DNA of 39,921 nt. Source: an uncultured Mollicutes bacterium. Its GTDB lineage: Bacteria > Bacillota_I > Bacilli_A > RFN20 > CAG-826. A program made the translations under genes and the position numbers. The stretch spans positions 1 through 39,921 of the forward strand of contig CAMNHN010000003.1 in the NCBI GenBank assembly GCA_946539555.1. Reading direction: 5' to 3'. A model generated the notes under the pieces. The model ran no database searches. It was not told the DNA's origin and worked only from the letters and a program-made list of their open reading frames with translations. Shown here one piece after another: positions 1 to 39,921 of the stretch. Each line of letters begins with the position of its first letter. The first letter of the stretch is position 1.

Positions 1-2535
1 AAAGAATTTGTTTCAAATATCATTGGAACAGATTTAAATTTAGATGTTTCAAGAGTTACAATCTCTGATATCATCGCAATTTTCAGCTATTTCATGAATT
101 TAATGGATGGTTTTGGATCAGTTGATGATATCGATCACTTATCAAATAGACGTATTAGATGTGTTGGTGAACTTATTCAAACTCAATTTAGAATTGGTTT
201 AACTAAGATGGCTAAAAACATCACCCAAAAAATGTCTATTACAACAGGTGAAACAAAAGAACTCACTCCTAAATCCTTAATAAATATAAAACCTTTATCA
301 AGTGAAATTAGAGAATTCTTTGCTAGCTCACAACTTTCTCAATTCATGGATCAAACTAACCCTCTTGCAGAACTTGCTAACAAGAGAAGAATTTCTGCTT
401 TAGGTCCTGGTGGATTAACCCGTGATAGAGCATCAATGGAAGTTCGTGACGTTCACTTTACTCACTACGGACGTATTTGTCCTATTGAAACACCTGAAGG
501 TCAAAACATTGGTTTAATTAATAATCTTGCTACATATGCAAAGATTGATAAATATGGATTTATTGAAACTCCATATAGAGTTGTTGATAAAGCAACTGGT
601 GAAATCACAGAAAAAACAGTTTATTTATCAGCAGAAGAAGAAAACAATCACGTTATTGCTCAAGCAACTCGTGATGATATTAAAGATGGAAAACTTGTTG
701 GCGACAAGGTTGTTGCTAGATTCAATGGTGAAAACATTTTAGCTGATGCAAAAGATGTTGATTATATCGATGAATCCCCAATGCAAATTGTTTCTGTTGC
801 TGCAGCATGTATTCCATTCCTTGAAAATGATGATAACACTCGTGCTTTGATGGGTGCTAACATGCAACGTCAAGCTTTACCACTTTTAAGACCACACGCA
901 CCATTTGTTGGTACAGGTCTTGAACATAGAATCGCATTCGATTGTGGATTAGCGGTAATTTCAGCTGAAGAAGGTGTTGTTACTTACACCGACTCACAAG
1001 TTATTAAAGTCCAAGAAAAAGAAGGCTTAAGAACATATAAGCTTCAAAAATTTGAAAGAAGTAACAATGGTACTTGTATCAATCAAAGTTCAATTGTTAA
1101 AGTTGGTCAAAAGATTAAGAAAGGTCAACTTATCGCTGATGGTCCATCAATGGATAATGGTGATTTAGCTCTTGGTCAAAACGTTGTCGTTGCCTTTATG
1201 ACTTGGGAAGGTCTCAACTATGAAGACGCTGTCATTATGTCAGAAAGACTCGTCAAAGAAGACGTTTATACAACAATTCATATCGAAAGTTATGAAATTG
1301 AATGTAGAAGAACTAAAAACGGTGATGAATCCATCACTCCAGATGTCCCTAACATCTCACTTGAAGCAAAAGCTCACCTCGATTTAGATGGTGTTGTCTA
1401 TCCAGGAACAGATGTTAAAGAAGGCGATATCTTAGTTGGTAAAGTTACACCAAAAGGTGTTTCTGAACCATCTCCAGATCAAAAATTATTAGATGCTATC
1501 TTTGGTGATAAATCAAAAGATGGTAAAGATACATCACTCCGTGTCCCTCACGGTGGTGCAGGAACAGTATTAGATGTCAAAGTTTTCACAAGAGAAAATG
1601 GTGATGAACTTGCTCCAGATGTCTATAAAAAGGTTAGAGTTTATGTCGTCCAAAAGAGAAAGATCTCTGAAGGTGATAAGATGTCAGGAAGACATGGTAA
1701 CAAGGGTGTTATTTCACGTATTGTTCCAGTTGAAGATATGCCATTCTTACCAGATGGTACCCCAGTTGATATCTTACTTAACCCACAAGGTGTCCCTTCA
1801 CGTATGAACATTGGACAAATTCTTGAAGTCCACTTAGGTATGGCATGTAAGACACTTGGTGGATTAAAGATTGCTACACCAGTTTTTGATGGAATCTCAA
1901 ACGATGAAATCACAGAACTCATGAAGGAAGCAAAAATGCCAAGTGATGGTAAATACACGCTTTATGATGGAAGAACCGGTGAAAAATTCGACGATAGAAT
2001 CAATGTTGGTGTCATGTACATGATTAAACTTGTCCACATGGTCGATGATAAACTTCACGCAAGAGCAACTGGACCATACTCAATGGTTACACAACAACCA
2101 CTTGGAGGTAAAGCTCAAAACGGTGGTCAAAGATTTGGTGAAATGGAAGTTTGGGCACTTGAAGCTTATGGTGCAGCAAACATTCTCCAAGAAATGATTA
2201 CTATTAAATCAGATGATAGAGTCGGTCGTAGAAAGACTTATGAATCTATTATTAAGGGTCACGCACTTCCAAAACCATCAATTCCAGAAGCATTCAAAGT
2301 TTTAACAAAAGAACTTATGGGCTTAGGAATGAATGTTGAGTTATTTGGTAAAGATGGAAAGATTATTGATATGGATGATCTTGCACGTAAGACTCAACAA
2401 GAAGAACAACGTTCAATGAGATCACTTAGAAATATTGGTACAGATGGATCTTCATCTTCAAGACATATAGACGATTTTGGTGATTATAGCGAAGAAAGTG
2501 CTACATCAGAAATTGTCAGTGATATTCTTAACTAG
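1..2535 (+). CDS. rpoB: DNA-directed RNA polymerase subunit beta (5' truncated by window edge)
   Basis: Frame 1 is open from base 1 ([62 protein letters not shown]...), joining the listed 813-aa ORF; RpoB motifs [75 protein letters not shown]. Confidence 0.98.
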
Positions 2536-2547
2536 GAGGTATGCGAT

Positions 2548-5500
2548 ATGTTTGATGTAGAAAAATTAGGCAGCATTAAAGTTGGATTAGCATCCCCTGC
2601 AAAAATTAGAGCATGGTCTCATGGTGAAGTTACAAAACCTGAAACCATCAACTACAGAAGCCAAAAACCAGAAATGGATGGTTTATTCTGTGAAAAAATC
2701 TTTGGACCTTCTAAAGATTTTGAATGTCATTGTGGAAAATATAAAAAAGCAAGATTTGCCGGTGTAGTTTGTGAAAAATGTGGCGTTGAAGTCATCACAA
2801 AAGAAGTTAGACGTGAAAGAATGGGTCACATTGAACTTGCTTCACCATGTTCACACATTTGGTACCTCAAAGGTATCCCATCAAGAATGGGTTTAGTCCT
2901 TGATGTATCTCCAAAACAACTTGAAGAAGTTATCTATTTCTCAGCACATATTTGTTTAAATCCAGGTACATGTAAGAGTTTATATTACAAACAATTCTTA
3001 GATGATAGAATCGGAAGAGAAACATTTATTGCTGCAATTAGAGAAATTCAAGCAGGACTTGAAACATCTTCATTTGAATATCAAAAAGCCAACGATTTAC
3101 TTGAAAAACTCGGCAATCCTAACGAAATTTTCAATTTCTTCACATGTGCATCATTTATTTCTCAATTCACAGGTGCTGAATTTGGAGAAGGTGCTGAAGC
3201 AATTAAACGTTTACTTCAAGAAATCAAAATTAACGACTACAAAGTAACTGATCCAGTAACCGGAGAAGAAAAAGTCGTTGAAGGTGAATTCAATAAGGTT
3301 CAAAGAGAAATCAAGTCAGCTAGTGGTCAAAAACTTCAAAAATTAATTAAGAGACTTGAAGTTTTAGATGCATTTAGAAAATCAAACAACCTTCCTGAAT
3401 GGATGGTTCTTGATGTAATTCCAGTCATTCCACCAGATTTAAGACCTATGTTACAACTTGATGGTGGAAGATTTGCAACATCTGATTTAAATGATTTATA
3501 TAGAAGAATCATTATGCGTAACAATCGTTTAAAGAAATTAATCGATATGAACGCACCATACGTTATTCTCATGAATGAAAAACGTATGTTACAAGAAGCA
3601 GTTGATGCTTTAATTGATAATGGTAGAAGAAATGGTAAACCAGTCACTGGTCCTAATGGTAGACCTTTAAAATCACTCTCAGGTGCTTTAAAAGGTAAAC
3701 AAGGTAGATTCAGACAAAACTTACTCGGTAAGAGAGTCGACTACTCAGGACGTTCAGTTATCGCTATTGGTCCATCCCTCAAGATGTATCAATGTGGACT
3801 TCCACGTGAAATGGCTATTAACTTACTTAGACCATTTATCGCTGCAATTTTAATTAAAACAGGTAAATGTCAATTACATAGACAAGCAGACAAGAAAATC
3901 GATGCAAAAGATAGCGATGTCTACGATGTTGTTGAAAAGATTATTTCTGAACACCCAGTTTTATTAAACCGTGCTCCAACACTTCATAGACTTGGTATCC
4001 AAGCATTCCAACCAATTCTTGTTGAAGGACGTGCTATTAGACTTCACCCATTAGTCTGTACTGGATTTAACGCAGACTTTGATGGTGACCAAATGGCAGT
4101 TCACGTCCCAATTTCAAAAGCTGCTCAAGAAGAAGCTTTGGATTTAATGCTTGCAAGTAACAACATTCTTGCTCCAAAAGATGGAAAACCAATCGTTACT
4201 CCATCTCAAGATATCTTAATTGGTAACTATTATCTTACAACTGAAGCTGATAAAGCAGATTTCTTAAGAAGAGCTGAAAAATATGAAAAAGTAGGCGACA
4301 CTGAAAGAGCTGAGCAATATCGTAAATATGCTGAAATGGAAGGTAAAGTCTTCAAAGATATTAATGAATGTTATAAATGTTATGAAATGGGCTTAATCCA
4401 TTTACATAATAGAATTGCAATTCCAGGCAATCAAATGAAGAGAACATCATTTGATGAAGAAATGAATAACAGTTATTTAATCACAACTGTTGGTAAAGTA
4501 ATTTTCAACTTTGCTCTTCCTACAGACTTCCCATATATTAACGATGGTAGTGCTGCAAATACAGTTATGAATAAGAGAGAATTTTTTGTACCAAAAGGAA
4601 CAAATATTCCTGAATACATTGCTTCTCTTCCATTAAAAGCTCCAATTGGTAAAAAGCAAATTAATGCAATTATTTCTGAAGTTTACCAAAAATATGGAAC
4701 TCAAAAGACAAGTGCTGTCCTTGATAAGATTAAAGACCAAGGTTATCACTATTCAACAGTTTCAGGTTTAACCGTTGCTATCTCTGATATTTATGTCATT
4801 AGTGGTAAAGATAAACTTGTTAAAGAAGGTGATGCAAAGGTTGAAAAGATTCAAAAACTTTACGAAAGAGGTTTCTTAACTGATCAAGAAAGACACGCAA
4901 AAGTTGTTGATGTCTGGAACGATATCAATAAAGTCGTTGGTGATAAGGTTGAATCAACTTTAAAAGAAGATAACCACAATCCACTTTATATCATGTGGAA
5001 CTCTGGTGCTCGTGGAAGTAGATCTAACTTCGCACAACTTATGGGTATGAGAGGCTTGATGGCATCTACTTCAGGTGAAACAATCGAATTACCAGTTAAA
5101 TCTTGTTTCCGTCAAGGTCTTAACGTTTCAGAATTCTTTACAGGAACTCACGGTGCCCGTAAAGGTGGTGCAGATACTGCTCTTAAAACAGCAGACTCAG
5201 GTTATTTAACAAGAAGACTTGTTGATGTTTCTCAAGACGTTATCGTTAGAGAAGAAGATTGTCACTCAGACCATGGTTCATTTGTTTCAGATATTATCAA
5301 CACTGCAGAAAATTCAGTTATCGTCACTTTAGAAGAAAGACTTGTTGGACGTTATGCATGTCACGATATTATTCACCCAGAAACAGGTGAAGTCATTGTT
5401 AAAGGCAACACTTTAATTGATGAAGTCGCTGCTGAAGCAGTTGTAAATGCTGGTATTACAAAGGTTGAAATTAGATCACTCTTTGGTTGCCAAACAAAAG

Positions 5501-31589: not shown

Positions 31590-33743
31590 ATGAACATTTT
31601 AAAAAGATTACATGAAGAATTAAACATTGAAGAAAAGAATCTTCAAGCAGCAATTGGTTTGATGGATGAAGGAAATACAATTCCTTTTATTGCTCGTTAT
31701 AGAAAAGAAGTAACAGGAAATTTAACCGATGCAGATTTAAGAAAATTAGAAGAAAGACTTACATATTTAAGAAATCTTGATGAAAGAATTACTACAGTTT
31801 TAAAGTCAATTGAAGAACAAGGAAAATTAACCGATGAACTTAAAGATCAAATTGAAAACGTTAAAACTCTTTCGCAATTAGAAGATCTTTATAGACCATA
31901 TAAACCTAAAAAGAAAACAAGAGGAAGTGTTGCAAAAGAAAAAGGTCTTCAACCACTTGCTGATGTAATTTTAAATGAAGATACTTCGGTTAATCTTTTT
32001 GAATACGCAAAAGAATTTATTAATGAAGAAAAGGGAGTAAAAAGTGCTGAAGAAGCTTTACAAGGAGCTAAAGATATTGTTGCTGAAACAATCAGTGATG
32101 ATCCAAAAATTAGACAACTTATCAAAGCTTATTTAGAAAGAGAAGGACAAATTCATAGTGTTGAAATTGCTCAAGACGAAAGAAACACATATGAAATGTA
32201 TAAAGATTATAAAGAGAAAATTAGTACAATTCCTCCACATAGATATTTAGCTGTTAATAGAGGTGAAAATGAAAAATGTTTAAGGGTAAATCTCGATTAT
32301 GATGCTGATTTTTTGAATGTAGAAGTAAAACGCAAATATAATATCAAACCACAATTTAGTGATTTATATGTTGAAATTGTTGCTGATGCAATGAAACGTT
32401 TAATCATGCCTAGTGTTGAAAATGAAATTCGTAGTGATTTATTTGAAAAAGCTAGTGAAAAATCATTAGAGATATTTAAAAAGAATCTTAAGAGTTTACT
32501 TATGTATCCTCCTCTAAAAAATAAAAACATTTTAGGTTTTGACCCAGGATTTAGAACTGGTTGTAAATATGCTTTAATTGATTCTCAAGGTACTCCAGAT
32601 TTTAATTGTATTGGAGTTAGCTATATTACAAGAGATTCTGCTGAGCAAGTTGAAAGAGCTAAAACTGAATTACTAAAAGTTTTGAAATCTAAAAAGATTG
32701 ATTACATCGCTTTAGGAAACGGAACTGCTAGTAGAGAAAGCGAAGCAGTTTTATCTAGTTTGATTAAAGAAAATAATCTTCCTATTAAGATATATATTGT
32801 AAATGAAAGTGGTGCATCAGTTTATAGTGCTTCAAAACTTGGAGAAGAAGAATTCCCTCAACTTCCTGTTGAAAAAAGAAGTGCAATTTCCTTGGCTCGT
32901 AGATTGATGGATCCTTTAAGTGAACTTGTAAAAATTGATCCAAAAGCAATTGGTGTAGGACAATATCAACATGATTTAGATCAAAAGAAATTAACAGAAA
33001 CACTTTCTACAGTTATTGAAGATTGTGTCAATAATGTTGGAGTTAACGTTAATACAGCAAGCGTTTCTTTACTTAAATATGTATCTGGAATTAATAAAGC
33101 CATTGCACAAAATATTTACGATTATCGTGCACAAAATGGGCCATTTAAAAATAGAAATGAACTCAAAAAAGTCCCTAAGTTAGGTGATAAAGCTTTTGAA
33201 CAAGCTGCAGGATTTTTAAGAATTATTGATGGAGATGAACCACTCGATAAAACAAGTGTTCACCCAGAAAGTTATAAAATTGCAAAAGCAATTATTAAGG
33301 AAACAAAGATTGATTTAAATGAGGATGATGAAGCAACTTTAGATTTGAAGTTATCAAAGTTAGATATTAATAAATTTAAAAACCAAAACGAAGTCGGCTT
33401 ATTAACTTTAAAAGATATTGTTGATGAACTTAAAAAGCCAGGTCGTGACATAAGAGAAGATGTAAAAATTGTTGAACTTGATAATGCCGTTAAATCAATA
33501 GAAGACTTAAAGGTTGGTATGATTTTAAACGGCACTGTTAGAAATATTTCTGATTTTGGTGCATTTGTTGATATTAATGTTCACCAAGATGGATTAGTTC
33601 ATATTTCTCAAATAGCAAATAAGTTTATTAAACATCCAAGCGAAGTCTTATCAATTAATGATATTGTTAAAGTTAAAGTTATATCAGTTGATTTAGCTAA
33701 AAAGAGAATTGGATTATCTATAAAAGACGTTAAACAAGATTAA
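31590..33743 (+). CDS. tex: Tex-family RNA-binding transcription accessory protein (S1 domain)
   Basis: ALMDEGNTIPFIARYRKEVTGNLTDADLRKLEERLTYLRNLDER-type N-terminus; GFDPGFRTGCKYALID; C-terminal S1 domain VGMILNGTVRNISDFGAFVDINVHQDGLVHISQ. Confidence 0.95.
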   Translation: MNILKRLHEELNIEEKNLQAAIGLMDEGNTIPFIARYRKEVTGNLTDADLRKLEERLTYLRNLDERITTVLKSIEEQGKLTDELKDQIENVKTLSQLEDLYRPYKPKKKTRGSVAKEKGLQPLADVILNEDTSVNLFEYAKEFINEEKGVKSAEEALQGAKDIVAETISDDPKIRQLIKAYLEREGQIHSVEIAQDERNTYEMYKDYKEKISTIPPHRYLAVNRGENEKCLRVNLDYDADFLNVEVKRKYNIKPQFSDLYVEIVADAMKRLIMPSVENEIRSDLFEKASEKSLEIFKKNLKSLLMYPPLKNKNILGFDPGFRTGCKYALIDSQGTPDFNCIGVSYITRDSAEQVERAKTELLKVLKSKKIDYIALGNGTASRESEAVLSSLIKENNLPIKIYIVNESGASVYSASKLGEEEFPQLPVEKRSAISLARRLMDPLSELVKIDPKAIGVGQYQHDLDQKKLTETLSTVIEDCVNNVGVNVNTASVSLLKYVSGINKAIAQNIYDYRAQNGPFKNRNELKKVPKLGDKAFEQAAGFLRIIDGDEPLDKTSVHPESYKIAKAIIKETKIDLNEDDEATLDLKLSKLDINKFKNQNEVGLLTLKDIVDELKKPGRDIREDVKIVELDNAVKSIEDLKVGMILNGTVRNISDFGAFVDINVHQDGLVHISQIANKFIKHPSEVLSINDIVKVKVISVDLAKKRIGLSIKDVKQD

Positions 33744-34240
33744 TTGTTTAAGGCTGCTTTAATTAAAGTTTTAATAGAAATTATATATTTGTTTGTAGAT
33801 TCATCAATACATATGAATCCGTGTTTTTCATAAAATTCTTTAGATTCTTTTTTTGCATCAAAAATTACAAAAGCTATCCCAATATCAACCGAAACAAGAA
33901 TAATTCTTTTAAAAGCAAATTTAAGTAGTTGCTTTCCATAACCTTTCTTTTGGAATTTTTTATCTATTGCAAAACGAGCAATTCTTATTGCTGGTAGCGG
34001 GTAACGTGGGGAATGCTTTAATATTTCTTGAGGCATTTCTTCACATCTAATTTGAGCAGCAGTGAGTGTATAAAAGCCAACGATTTTTCCTTCATCCTGC
34101 AATACAAAAGTTCTGCTTATATTTTTTGAGTCGTTTTGTTTTGCATATTTTATAAAGTAAGAATTTAAATCTTTATTGCCACAATCAAATTTTTTGATCT
34201 CTTTGTCATCAACAAATCTTATCGTAATCTCTTTAATCAT
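33740..34240 (-). CDS. GNAT-family N-acetyltransferase, TacT-like toxin
   Basis: LNSYFIKYAKQNDSKNISRTFVLQDEGKIVGFYTLTAAQI ... PAIRIARFAIDKKFQKKGYGKQLLKFAFKR; overlaps the upstream DUF1778 gene by 8 nt. Confidence 0.88.
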   Translation of the reverse strand: MIKEITIRFVDDKEIKKFDCGNKDLNSYFIKYAKQNDSKNISRTFVLQDEGKIVGFYTLTAAQIRCEEMPQEILKHSPRYPLPAIRIARFAIDKKFQKKGYGKQLLKFAFKRIILVSVDIGIAFVIFDAKKESKEFYEKHGFICIDESTNKYIISIKTLIKAALNN

Positions 34241-34484
34241 TTAATAAAGCCCTTAATTCTTCATTTGGTTCTGGTGGATTATCTAATAATTGAATTATTT
34301 GATCTCTTTGCTCATTTGAAAGAATCAAGATTTCTTCTTTTTCTAAATCCATTTTTGCTGCATTAATAGCTACAGATAAAATATATGAACTTAGACTAGT
34401 TCTATTTAAATATGCGGCTGTTTCAAGTATTTCCTTATCTTTTTTATTTACTCTTAAATCAATTCTTGTAGTTTTGGCTTCCAT
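34233..34484 (-). CDS. DUF1778-family (TacA-like, ribbon-helix-helix) antitoxin
   Basis: MEAKTTRIDLRVNKKDKEILETAAYLNRTSLSSYILSVAINAAKMDLEKEE...NEELRALLND; likely start ATG at 34484 (the ORF-track start at 34535 is an upstream extension). Confidence 0.87.
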   Translation of the reverse strand: MEAKTTRIDLRVNKKDKEILETAAYLNRTSLSSYILSVAINAAKMDLEKEEILILSNEQRDQIIQLLDNPPEPNEELRALLND

Positions 34485-34498
34485 TGTATTGCTCCAAA

Positions 34499-34517
34499 GT
34501 GTGTTATTTGTACACAC
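34499..34517. promoter_or_regulatory. Inverted repeat operator at the TA promoter
   Basis: GTGTG-ttatttgta-CACAC, abutting a minus-strand TATAAT (34518-34523 as attata on +). Confidence 0.45.
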
Positions 34518-34650
34518 ATTATAAAAATAATTCAAATTGAATTCAATTAATAATTAAAATTTTTCAGTGTTCATTTTAATAATCTGATTAGTGTTGTATA
34601 ATCTTTCAAATTTATTTTATAATTTAATAAATTATAAGGAGGGCTATATT

Positions 34651-36410: not shown

Positions 36411-36869
36411 ATGTATAAACAAACAACAAGTTTAAAGAAGGAAGAGATCTCACGCAAATGGTATGTTGTCGATGCAGCAGGTTTACCACTTGGAAGATTA
36501 GCAAGTAATATTGCCGTCTACTTAATGGGTAAAGAAAAACCATCATGGACACCAAACCAAGATTGTGGAGACTACGTTATTGTTATTAATTGTGAAAAGG
36601 TTGCTGTTAGTGGTACACATAAACCTTTAAACAAGAAATACTACAATGTTAGTGGATACAATGGTGGTATGAGAATCAGAACTCTTGAAGAAATGTTAGA
36701 AAAGTATCCAGAAGAACTTTTCGAAAGAGTCGTTTGGGGTATGTTACCAAAGGGAAGACTTGGTAGACAAATATTCAAAAAACTCAAAGTCTATAAAGGT
36801 GCTGAGCACAAACAACAAGCTCAAAACCCAGAAGTCTTAACTTTCAAAAATTTAGGAGGTAAAAACTAA
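36411..36869 (+). CDS. rplM: 50S ribosomal protein L13
   Basis: [64 protein letters not shown]...; SD ggagg before ATG 36411. Confidence 0.97.
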
Positions 36870-37261
36870 TGGCTAACGCAAAAACTTACTATGGCACAGG
36901 AAGAAGAAAATCCAGTGTTGCAAGAGTTTATGTTAAATTAGGTTCAGGAAAAATTACTGTCAATGATAGAGATGTCAAAGACTATTTCCCTTATGAAACA
37001 TTAGTTCTTGATTTAAAACAACCTCTTACAATTTTAGGTGTCGAAGCCAAATACGATATCGTTGTCTTTGCACAAGGTGGTGGTTTTACTGGCCAAGCCG
37101 GTGCTGTTAGACTTGGTATTGCACGTGCTTTACTTGAAGCAGGTGAAGATAGAGGCGCCCTCAAAGCTGCTGGAATGTTAACAAGAAATCCAAGAGCAAA
37201 AGAAAGAAAGAAATACGGTCTCAAAGCCGCAAGAAGAGCTCCACAATTCTCAAAACGTTAA
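36869..37261 (+). CDS. rpsI: 30S ribosomal protein S9
   Basis: [34 protein letters not shown]...[35 protein letters not shown]; overlaps rplM stop. Confidence 0.97.
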
Positions 37262-37443
37262 TCTCACGTTTATATATTGCGCAAAAGGTCCAGTTTTGGA
37301 CCTTTTGTTTTGCATAAATATTTAATTAATTATTCAATTATATTCACAAAAATATGATAATAAAAATATGGTAAAGAATATAACTTGTGATGTAAACAAA
37401 ACTATCGAAAACCTTAACTTTGGAAAAAAGAAAGTTTCTTTTT
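37126..37443 (+). repeat. Long perfect direct repeat, copy 1 (318 bp)
   Basis: Identical to 38132-38449 (offset 1006); similarity continues with 3 mismatches to about 37461; contains rpsI 3' end, terminator, intergenic region and the start of a WapA-leader ORF. Confidence 0.95.
37282..37310 (+). terminator. Rho-independent terminator after rpsI
   Basis: CAAAAGGTCC-agtttt-GGACCTTTTG then TTT. Confidence 0.8.
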
Positions 37444-37565
37444 CAAGATGCAATCATAGTTTTTATGAAGGCGTAAAAAGTGATCTCAAGTATGTAATCG
37501 AAGCAGCATATTGTATTGATAGTGCGTATTTGAATGCTATTATTGACACTATGTGGTTTTTCTAG
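37368..37565 (+). pseudogene. Truncated WapA/Rhs-like leader ORF fused to a short C-terminal tail
   Basis: MVKNITCDVNKTIENLNFGKKKVSFSRCNHSF... resembles the start of the ORF at 39057 (MVKETNIKKDNFEIEELTFGRKKISLSTFKNKHKN); ends at TAGGAGG. Confidence 0.6.
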
Positions 37566-37574
37566 GAGGTGTCT

Positions 37575-37895
37575 ATGGACCTGAATACTTATAAGGCGAT
37601 AGTTGAATATATTCCATATTCTCGAAAAACGACTATTCCCTTTAAAAATAAAAACTATGCTCCACAAATCGAAATTAATGGAAATAAAATATTTTCAGGC
37701 AGCGCATGGTCTGTAATTTGTTATATCTATGAAGCAATTGATACTAATACTTATTATGCATATATTAAGTTTTTAAATGAAGAAAAAGCACCTAATATTT
37801 TATATGAGGGATTGAATTTTTACATATGTGAAGGCCCTAAGCGAGTAGCTTCATGCAAATTAATTGAAATCTCAAAAAGTACTATTAATATGTAA
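37575..37895 (+). CDS. Small hypothetical protein, candidate immunity protein
   Basis: ATG preceded by taggaggtgtct; about 106 aa (MDLNTYKAIVEYIPYSRKTTIPFKNKNYAPQIEINGNKIFSGSAWSVICYIYEAIDTNTYYAYIKFLNEEKAPNIL...); sits directly after the truncated toxin-like leader. Confidence 0.6.
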   Translation: MDLNTYKAIVEYIPYSRKTTIPFKNKNYAPQIEINGNKIFSGSAWSVICYIYEAIDTNTYYAYIKFLNEEKAPNILYEGLNFYICEGPKRVASCKLIEISKSTINM

Positions 37896-38012
37896 GCTGG
37901 GTGTCGCAGTTACTAAACATGCGACAGTGCAAGATGCTGTGGCAGATTGTGACACCAGTCTAATTTTTTACAATAATTAAGTAATTATCGCTTAAATAAT
38001 GTAAAAGACTGA

Positions 38013-38267
38013 ACTTTTAATACCTCCAAAAGCAAATTAGGTGAGGAAGTATTTTATATAATACAAACAGTTTTAAACAATGAAATCTATTTCATTGCTG
38101 AGTCATCCAATGGGGTTGATAGAACATTAGTTGCTTTACTTGAAGCAGGTGAAGATAGAGGCGCCCTCAAAGCTGCTGGAATGTTAACAAGAAATCCAAG
38201 AGCAAAAGAAAGAAAGAAATACGGTCTCAAAGCCGCAAGAAGAGCTCCACAATTCTCAAAACGTTAA
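38013..38267 (+). pseudogene. Chimeric frame: unidentified ORF fragment fused in frame to duplicated rpsI C-terminus
   Basis: [84 protein letters not shown]; no ATG/GTG/TTG start before the junction. Confidence 0.75.
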
Positions 38268-38449
38268 TCTCACGTTTATATATTGCGCAAAAGGTCCAGT
38301 TTTGGACCTTTTGTTTTGCATAAATATTTAATTAATTATTCAATTATATTCACAAAAATATGATAATAAAAATATGGTAAAGAATATAACTTGTGATGTA
38401 AACAAAACTATCGAAAACCTTAACTTTGGAAAAAAGAAAGTTTCTTTTT
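38132..38449 (+). repeat. Long perfect direct repeat, copy 2 (318 bp)
   Basis: Identical to 37126-37443. Confidence 0.95.
38288..38316 (+). terminator. Duplicated rpsI terminator
   Basis: Exact copy of 37282-37310. Confidence 0.75.
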
Positions 38450-38472
38450 TAAGATACAAACATAGTTTTTAG
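38374..38472 (+). pseudogene. Second truncated WapA/Rhs-like leader ORF
   Basis: MVKNITCDVNKTIENLNFGKKKVSFLRYKHSF* ending at TAGGAGG. Confidence 0.6.
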
Positions 38473-38481
38473 GAGGGCTTA

Positions 38482-38962
38482 TTGAAGGATTTTATGAGAA
38501 AAATTGAATTTCGTAAGGTGAATGGTGACATTCAGGTTTTAATAGATCATTCTTTATTTAAAACCGAAGAAAATGAAATTAAGTGTCTTTTTGAAGTCTT
38601 AACAGAAATAATAAAAGCATATACATTCAACGGAACTGTAGTAATTAGTTGTAAAGAAAAAAAATATAATAGATAAGTTAAAAAGAGCCTGCATTAAATA
38701 TGAAGAAAATGAACAAAAAATTCTTTGGATAAAAAATGTAATGTTAGGCCTTTATTTTAATGCTGAAGTACTATATGAAATGATAAGTTTATTTTATTTA
38801 GCCGATGTCACTTTTGATGGAGAAGGTGTTTGCTTCGATAATAGTAAAGTCGGAATCGTAATAAATGACAATGATTGTTCAATTTTTAATTTAAATAAGA
38901 GCCGGGAGAATTTAAATTATTATAAAGAGCAATTTGCGAATATAATTGAAACCAAAGTCTAA
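38482..38962 (+). pseudogene. Candidate immunity gene with a frameshift at an A8 run (two listed ORFs 38482-38676 and 38741-38962)
   Basis: Frame 1 ...EIIKAYTFNGTVVISCKEK continues in the +1 frame as KKNIIDKLKRACIKYEENEQKILWIKNVMLGLYFNAEVLYEMISLFYLADVTFDGEGVCFDNSKVGIVINDNDCSIFN...; switch at A8 38657-38664; SD aggaggg at 38471. Confidence 0.65.
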
Positions 38963-39056
38963 GTTTTAGCATTTTGAATTTTATAATTTTTAGTTTTGAG
39001 AAACGAGATTTTAAATTGTTTATATTATTTATATAATTAAATAAAGGTAAAAGTAT

Positions 39057-39921
39057 ATGGTTAAAGAAACAAATATTAAAAAAGATAATTTTGAAATTGA
39101 AGAATTAACTTTTGGAAGAAAGAAAATATCTTTAAGTACATTTAAAAACAAACATAAAAATTTAATAACAAAAAATAATTCAAATACTAGCGGTTTTGAT
39201 AGTTTAAATCTTACTACTTTTATCGATGAAAAGAACCCAAATACAATTGAATATAGTTTTGGAAATTGCAAAGCTAGAATTAGTTACATAATGGATTCAA
39301 ATAAGAAACTCAATAATATTGAGATTAAAAATGAAGAAATTAAATTTTCTGATGGATTTTATAATTTTGAGTATAAGAAGACAAAAAACGGAATTAAAGA
39401 GCTTATTTATATTAATAACAGGTGTGAAGAATATGTCTTTAAATACAATGTCAAACTTGATAATTTAAAAATTGAAAAAAAGAATAACCATATTATTTTT
39501 AAAAGTGTAGATTTAAATAAAACGATTTTTACTTTAATTGCACCTTTTTTATACGATTCTTCTCATAATTTTTCACATAAAGTCAATATTGATATTTGTA
39601 ATATTGGCAATGAAGAATATGAATTAGTTTATACTTATGATAAAAAGCGGATAAATAGTGATGAAAGGAATTTCCCAATTATTATTGATCCGACAATTAG
39701 TGTTAACGAGGAGAGTTCAGAGATTTATCAACTAATTTATAACGAATCAACTGGTAATTGGGAAGAAGATTTAAATCAAAGCTCATATTTCTATATTGAT
39801 GCTACTTATAGGGTCGGAATTTATATTGATATTTCGCAATTAAATCTGAGTGGACGTAAAATTACATCAGCATATTTAAATTTGGATTTCTCCGATGCTG
39901 GCAATTTCCTAGTGAATAATA
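39057..39921 (+). CDS. WapA/Rhs-type DNRLRE-domain protein, N-terminal part (runs off window; candidate polymorphic toxin)
   Basis: Open frame to the window end (no stop, so missing from ORF track): MVKETNIKKDNFEIEELTFGRKKISLSTFKNKHKN...NFPIIIDPTISVNEESSEIYQLIYNE...ATYRVGIYIDISQLNLSGRKITSAYLNLDF; FPIIIDPTI plus the ITSAYLNL segment match the WapA N-terminal/DNRLRE pattern; SD aaaggt and TATAAT at 39032. Confidence 0.75.
   Translation, partial: MVKETNIKKDNFEIEELTFGRKKISLSTFKNKHKNLITKNNSNTSGFDSLNLTTFIDEKNPNTIEYSFGNCKARISYIMDSNKKLNNIEIKNEEIKFSDGFYNFEYKKTKNGIKELIYINNRCEEYVFKYNVKLDNLKIEKKNNHIIFKSVDLNKTIFTLIAPFLYDSSHNFSHKVNIDICNIGNEEYELVYTYDKKRINSDERNFPIIIDPTISVNEESSEIYQLIYNESTGNWEEDLNQSSYFYIDATYRVGIYIDISQLNLSGRKITSAYLNLDFSDAGNFLVNN

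What the first reader, a model, noticed from the sequence alone, without database searches (positions are those of the whole stretch)
39057..39921. Large open frame at the right edge missed by the ORF track: WapA-type DNRLRE protein
From ATG 39057 the frame is open to the last base (288 codons). FPIIIDPTI followed by a YRVGIYIDISQLNLSGRKITSAYLNLDF segment matches the WapA N-terminal region leading into a DNRLRE domain. It has its own TATAAT and SD, unlike the collapsed upstream copies.
Basis: partly seen in the sequence, partly recalled or inferred. Interest (0 to 1): 0.65.

Follow-up and report, generated by a model that had tools for sequence, protein, structure and literature searches.

The report
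Truncated Rhs toxin beside orphan immunity genes
The open frame at the right edge is the beginning of a very large Rhs/WapA-like toxin that gut bacteria probably use against each other, cut off only because the assembled contig ends there; the gene itself is a known kind, but it has no export signal and sits behind broken older copies that appear to have kept only their protective (immunity) genes.

Summary
Confirmed: from ATG 39057 a frame is open for 288 codons to the last base. The window is a complete contig (39,921 bp) of a 0.97-Mb, 74% complete MAG, so the contig end truncates the gene. Profile libraries give no hit, but direct homology does: residues 97-276 match 'DNRLRE domain-containing' Rhs proteins of Priestia (31%, E 9e-12), and residues ~66-248 match 1,900-2,180-aa Rhs toxins in MAGs of the same family and order. 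Reading: N-terminus of an Rhs/WapA-type polymorphic toxin, ending inside its DNRLRE-like domain; core, toxin tip and cognate immunity gene are unassembled. It is not a canonical WapA: it and the order's other Rhs proteins lack the signal peptide of Priestia/Streptococcus/Lactococcus homologues. In relatives a small membrane protein lies just upstream of the Rhs gene (7 of 7 strong hits); none was found in this genome. Upstream, two remnants (first ~33 codons of a homologous N-terminus) are each joined to an immunity-like small gene and separated by an exact 318-nt repeat containing the rpsI 3' end: best read as module displacement by recombination anchored in rpsI. The gene is a known kind; the signal-less form and 5'-side remnant array are a modest variant. 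Assembly artefact in the array is not excluded.

The parts
39057..39921 (+). 5' part (288 codons, contig-truncated) of a signal-peptide-less Rhs/WapA-type gene
   Evidence: Open frame; homologues are Rhs proteins of Priestia plasmids and of MAGs of the same family and order
39672..39698 (+). FPIIIDPTI motif (residues 206-214), the conserved hinge before the DNRLRE-like domain
   Evidence: R204, P207 and P212 are invariant in the alignment of nine Rhs N-termini
39714..39920 (+). First ~70 residues of the DNRLRE-like domain, cut by the contig end
   Evidence: Aligned with the start of the NF033679 domain of the Priestia protein
39010..39047 (+). Promoter-like TTTAAA-16-TATAAT and AAAGG SD-like site of the open frame
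   Evidence: consensus matches only
37126..37443 (+). Repeat copy 1: rpsI 3' end, terminator-like hairpin, leader, first codons of a Wap-like N-terminus
   Evidence: 318 nt identical to copy 2
38132..38449 (+). Repeat copy 2: duplicated last 45 codons of rpsI, hairpin, leader, first codons of a Wap-like N-terminus
   Evidence: 318 nt identical to copy 1; left junction abrupt, homology fades about 20 nt past the exact block
37368..37565 (+). Remnant 1: ~33 codons of a homologous N-terminus joined to an unrelated 3' stretch
   Evidence: MVKNITCDVNKTIENLNFGKKKVSF aligns with MVKETNIKKDNFEIEELTFGRKKISL; 1 of 5000 shuffles as good
37569..37895 (+). Immunity-like ORF 1 (108 aa)
   Evidence: ~50% identity to the C-terminal domain of 413-aa TM proteins in four genomes of another genus; immunity role inferred from position
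37890..38128 (+). Relic element: coding tail (CKLGVAVTKHATVQDAVADCDTSLIFYNN*) plus start of a second short ORF
   Evidence: 71% identical over ~200 nt in the Rhs-linked array of G036; relic also 3' of an Rhs immunity-like gene in G259
38374..38472 (+). Remnant 2: 32 codons of the Wap-like N-terminus, then a stop
   Evidence: (0 of 5000 shuffles as good)
38482..38962 (+). Immunity-like ORF 2, broken into 38482-38676 and 38648-38962 by a frameshift near a run of A
   Evidence: no convincing homologue
36869..37261 (+). Intact rpsI, proposed recombination anchor
   Evidence: rpsI of same-genus G147 has the same upstream neighbours but no such array

Best explanation
The frame is the N-terminal part of an Rhs/WapA-type polymorphic toxin: a ~2,000-residue protein whose N-terminal region and DNRLRE-like domain precede an Rhs shell that encloses a C-terminal toxin, with an immunity gene after it. 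It would be released to poison neighbouring, mostly related bacteria. Shown: the frame, the homology to Rhs N-termini, and the absence of a signal peptide. Inferred: the missing core and toxin, and the function. The sequence upstream records toxin turnover. New modules carrying rpsI-leader-N-terminus-immunity DNA entered by homologous pairing in rpsI and illegitimate joining at the other end. The old toxin bodies were lost and their immunity genes were kept behind ~33-codon stubs. The insertion order and the selective reason (protection from kin that still carry the old toxins) are inferred.
For: Priestia DNRLRE/Rhs proteins match residues 97-276 (E 9e-12) and carry Rhs repeats, DUF6531 and an Rhs-associated core. 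Independent matches in the order include G228 (E 4e-12), G076, G226, G225, G189 and G273, mostly frames of 1,900-2,180 aa, several with the Rhs core end followed by variable tips, small immunity-like genes and displaced cores. Remnant N-termini match this gene's N-terminus. The exact 318-nt repeat includes 45 codons of rpsI. The element between the units recurs in the Rhs-linked arrays of two other genera. The proposed mechanism is the one inferred for V. cholerae immunity arrays (PMC5361080) and is related to rhs tip displacement (PMC2935791).
Against: No family profile hits P0001. No Rhs repeat or core is found anywhere in the own assembly, so the core is never seen. The small ORFs have no known immunity family, and ORF 2 is frameshifted. 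In known arrays old modules are displaced downstream of the intact gene, whereas here the remnants lie upstream. The membrane gene that precedes the Rhs gene in several relatives is absent.
Confidence: 0.7

Rival explanations
1. The frame is the 5' part of a separate ~500-aa N-terminal protein, followed by a separate Rhs core gene (split arrangement).
For: G228 and G226 carry exactly this: a 515-aa protein homologous to P0001 (31%) directly before a 1,575-1,580-aa Rhs gene; a Streptococcus plasmid also has a 1,035-aa N-terminal gene before a separate Rhs gene.
Against: Most relatives are single long genes.
Confidence: 0.17
2. It is a third decayed copy that happens to be open for 288 codons and stops soon after the contig end.
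For: Two neighbouring copies are decayed; no promoter or SD evidence beyond consensus matches.
Against: 288 codons without a stop (chance ~5e-14) and GC declining over codon positions 1-3 as in rpsI.
Confidence: 0.08
3. The upstream array is a short-read assembly chimera of two strains, not a real tandem arrangement (this concerns the array, not the open frame).
For: The two copies are identical over 318 nt, the kind of repeat where a metagenome assembler can misjoin.
Against: The left border of the second copy is an abrupt join between an Rhs-array element and mid-rpsI, which a simple misjoin inside the repeat does not make; the two units carry different remnants and small ORFs.
Confidence: 0.22
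4. A DNRLRE-domain surface protein (adhesin or carbohydrate-binding) without an Rhs toxin.
For: DNRLRE/CBM96 domains also occur outside Rhs proteins (family knowledge).
Against: The homologues examined by sequence belong to Rhs genes or to N-terminal genes next to an Rhs gene.
Confidence: 0.07

Closest known systems
WapA of Bacillus and Streptococcus (Rhs/WapA polymorphic toxins with DNRLRE domain)
   Same: N-terminal region with the IDPT motif leading into a DNRLRE-like domain; homologues continue into Rhs repeats, core and variable tip with small downstream genes.
   Different: No Sec signal peptide and no class B sortase gene upstream; core and tip not seen here; remnants lie 5' rather than 3' of the gene.
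Rhs orphans / C-terminal displacement in Enterobacteria (Jackson 2009, PMC2935791)
   Same: Module turnover leaves partial copies and small genes in a tandem series.
   Different: There the left-over pieces are core plus tip downstream of the gene; here they are 5' leader/N-terminus stubs plus an immunity-like gene, upstream.
Vibrio cholerae T6SS orphan immunity gene arrays (Kirchberger 2017, PMC5361080)
   Same: Effector lost, immunity gene kept, insertion explained by an upstream homologous anchor and an illegitimate far end.
   Different: The anchor here would be a core ribosomal protein gene (rpsI), copied in part; no T6SS.
Rhs toxins of the same order (e.g. G036 = uncultured Erysipelotrichaceae bacterium isolate RUG131)
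   Same: Signal-less N-terminus, same hinge region, same relic element in the array.
   Different: Several relatives carry a small membrane-protein gene just upstream of the Rhs gene; this gene does not.

Membership tests
Rhs/WapA polymorphic toxins | N-terminal region homologous to WapA-type Rhs proteins (IDPT hinge) | tested here: met
Rhs/WapA polymorphic toxins | Rhs/YD repeats and Rhs-associated core | not testable with these tools
   Contig ends at 39921; none elsewhere in the own assembly; present in homologues
Rhs/WapA polymorphic toxins | Variable C-terminal toxin with cognate immunity gene 3' of it | not testable with these tools
   3' part not assembled
WapA sensu stricto (Gram-positive wall-associated) | N-terminal Sec signal peptide | tested here: not met
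   Max 19-residue hydropathy -0.25 in the first 80 aa versus 1.2-2.3 in Priestia, Streptococcus, Lactococcus and L065
DNRLRE domain (NF033679 / PF24517 CBM96) | Profile match | tested here: inconclusive
   No profile hit, but only ~70 of ~160 residues are present and they align with the start of the Priestia domain
Orphan immunity array | Immunity genes without cognate toxin, homologous to immunity genes of toxin loci | tested here: inconclusive
   ORF 1 matches one domain of TM proteins not next to Rhs genes; ORF 2 has no convincing homologue; position and remnants fit

The most novel reading that the evidence does not exclude
Signal-peptide-less Rhs toxins of this order form a distinct export class: the toxin is released with help from a dedicated small membrane (holin-like) protein encoded just upstream, and their loci can evolve by rpsI-anchored insertion that leaves immunity genes behind toxin N-terminal stubs, giving a heritable record of past toxins on the 5' side.
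Probability: 0.2. Interest if true: 0.65.

Novelty: new variant of a known kind. Interest (0 to 1): 0.36.

Why it matters
The gene itself is a known kind. What would matter is (1) how ~2,000-residue Rhs toxins without a signal peptide leave a cell, with a consistently adjacent small membrane protein as a concrete candidate in relatives, and (2) a case where the anchor for exchange of toxin modules would be a core ribosomal gene, which would let immunity genes accumulate at a fixed chromosomal address in gut Firmicutes.

Tried and rejected
Profile scans of P0001 (Pfam, NCBIfam, PHROGs, PADLOC): nothing. Continuation of the gene on another contig: no Rhs sequence in the own assembly. Single-sequence AlphaFold model: mean pLDDT 41, discarded. 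Genome contigs and viral-contig scans with P0001: no relatives. Hits G040, G092 and G253 to P0001 were rejected as chance (stops inside, or unrelated enzymes). Immunity ORF 1 as an EF-Tu domain-3-like fold: four of five best PDB matches are EF-Tu C-termini but at E 0.8-1.9, only a lead. The 37890-38128 element as a structured RNA: no significant Rfam match in either copy; part of it is conserved as coding sequence. Its identity by plasmid/phage search: only chance hits. An exact-word scan gave L081, which names the relative G036.

Full report
Observation. The frame at 39057 is real: 288 codons without a stop to the last base, against a simulated maximum of 123 codons in sequence of the same composition. 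The window is the whole of contig C3 of a 968,846-bp, 58-contig, 74% complete genome, and the contig ends at 39921. The gene is therefore cut by the assembly, and its 3' part cannot be read. The genome has no other copy of this protein, no Rhs repeats and nothing similar to the Rhs protein of a relative.

Identity. No profile library recognises the 288 residues. Direct comparison does. Residues 97-276 match Priestia plasmid proteins annotated 'DNRLRE domain-containing protein' at 31% identity (E 9e-12). The full Priestia protein has a DNRLRE domain (NF033679, residues 288-446), DUF6531, Rhs repeats and an Rhs-associated core. The alignment passes through the IDPT hinge and ~50 residues into the DNRLRE domain. 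In the same order, the best matches are long frames: G228 2161 aa (E 4e-12), G076 1897 aa, G225 2179 aa, G189 1956 aa, G036 2130 aa and G005 2147 aa. Those scanned carry Rhs repeats, and those read to the end finish in the usual 'RYRGYYFD..TGLYYLNSRYYDPELGRFISPD' core followed by variable, often glycine-rich hydrophobic tips and small genes. One named relative, G036, is 'uncultured Erysipelotrichaceae bacterium isolate RUG131'.

What kind of Rhs. A WapA of Bacillus or Streptococcus has a Sec signal peptide (PMC12704120). P0001 does not, and neither do L008, L009, L010, L060, L061 or L063; homologues from Priestia, Streptococcus, Lactococcus and the more distant MAG L065 do. So it resembles WapA in domain order but fails one defining feature. 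In relatives a 150-175-aa membrane protein lies just upstream of the Rhs gene: all seven strong hits, in six genomes (G228 twice, G225, G076, G036, G226, G237), precede an Rhs gene or its split N-terminal gene, in the G226 locus and one of the two G228 loci with one small gene between. Another relative (L010) has a recognisable holin (PF16079, E 5e-15; PHROG holin) two genes upstream, and L016 has one downstream. The seven-hit family itself has no clear family match, so 'holin-like' is inference from size and membrane segments. The own genome has no hit.

Upstream array. Between rpsI and the frame lie two units. An exact 318-nt repeat (37126-37443 and 38132-38449) holds the last 45 codons of rpsI, its hairpin, a leader and the first codons of a Wap-like gene; the left border of copy 2 is abrupt, and the two copies part about 20 nt after the exact block. 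The predicted N-termini of both units match the N-terminus of the intact gene (at most 1 of 5000 shuffles as good). After ~33 codons each is joined to a small, different ORF: 37569-37895 (108 aa), and 38482-38962 (broken by a frameshift). ORF 1 is ~50% identical to the C-terminal domain of 413-aa membrane proteins in another genus. The size, position and neighbours suggest immunity genes; no family confirms it.

Between the units, 37890-38128 is a relic whose DNA is 71% identical over ~200 nt in the array behind the Rhs gene of G036, and whose first part (54 nt, 83%) follows the immunity-like gene of an Rhs module in G259, with a degenerate version of the second part after it. So the array contains material that travels with Rhs loci across genera. 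Same-genus G147 has rpsI with the same upstream neighbours but unrelated genes downstream.

Mechanism. The simplest account is intraspecific homology-facilitated illegitimate recombination: donor DNA of the form rpsI-leader-stub-immunity-relic pairs in rpsI, and its far end joins inside the recipient's rpsI, duplicating the rpsI end and leader. Repeated events push older modules, including the intact toxin, away from rpsI. The same type of event was proposed for V. cholerae immunity arrays (PMC5361080). What differs is the core-gene anchor and that the left-overs are 5' stubs with immunity-like genes upstream of the intact toxin. This account is inference from sequence anatomy; a mis-assembly could not be excluded.

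Verdict. Observation confirmed; interpretation partly supported: an Rhs/WapA-type gene by homology, not provable as WapA, truncated by the contig. Ordinary as a gene, moderately interesting as a locus.

Noticed in passing
L060 4562-5083, L063 11633-12157, L008 7922-8440, L009 7850-8317, L061 7820-8281, L062 2876-3337, L093 5989-6516: A 150-175-aa membrane protein family lies just upstream of signal-less Rhs genes (7 of 7 strong genome hits; in L061/L062 one gene intervenes). Possible export partner.
   Followed up: partly
L010 8686-8973 and 8976-9287; L016 7545-8235: Recognisable phage-type holin plus XhlA-like gene beside Rhs genes (PF16079 E 5e-15; PHROG holin E 4e-30).
   Followed up: partly
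L079 4451-5722 (G036 = RUG131): A Pycsar anti-phage system (PycC E 1e-86, PycTM E 4e-19) sits within the small-gene array behind the Rhs gene.
   Followed up: partly
window 37890-38128; L009 17750-18060; L078 near 4700-5030: Conserved relic (coding tail QDAVADC plus start of a short ORF) after Rhs immunity-like genes in three genera; identity unknown.
   Followed up: partly
L060 11537-14234: Three tandem near-identical lipoprotein-like genes directly behind an Rhs gene, apparently an amplified immunity gene.
   Followed up: no
L061 5435-6982 with 677-5419; L062 4175-10465: Rhs protein split into a 515-aa N-terminal gene and a ~1,580-aa core gene, with different C-terminal tips in the two genomes.
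   Followed up: no
L018 3877-7122: Same-genus Rhs locus with a displaced core module and several small PH-like membrane proteins behind the full gene.
   Followed up: no
window 33740-34535, - strand: TacA-type antitoxin plus GNAT acetyltransferase: a TacAT-like toxin-antitoxin pair (PF08681 E 1e-19).
   Followed up: partly
window 38650-38676: Immunity-like ORF 2 is broken near a run of eight A; could be a sequencing error or real decay.
   Followed up: no
window 37569-37895: Immunity-like ORF 1 resembles EF-Tu domain 3 weakly (four of five best PDB matches are EF-Tu, E 0.8-1.9); a lead only.
   Followed up: partly
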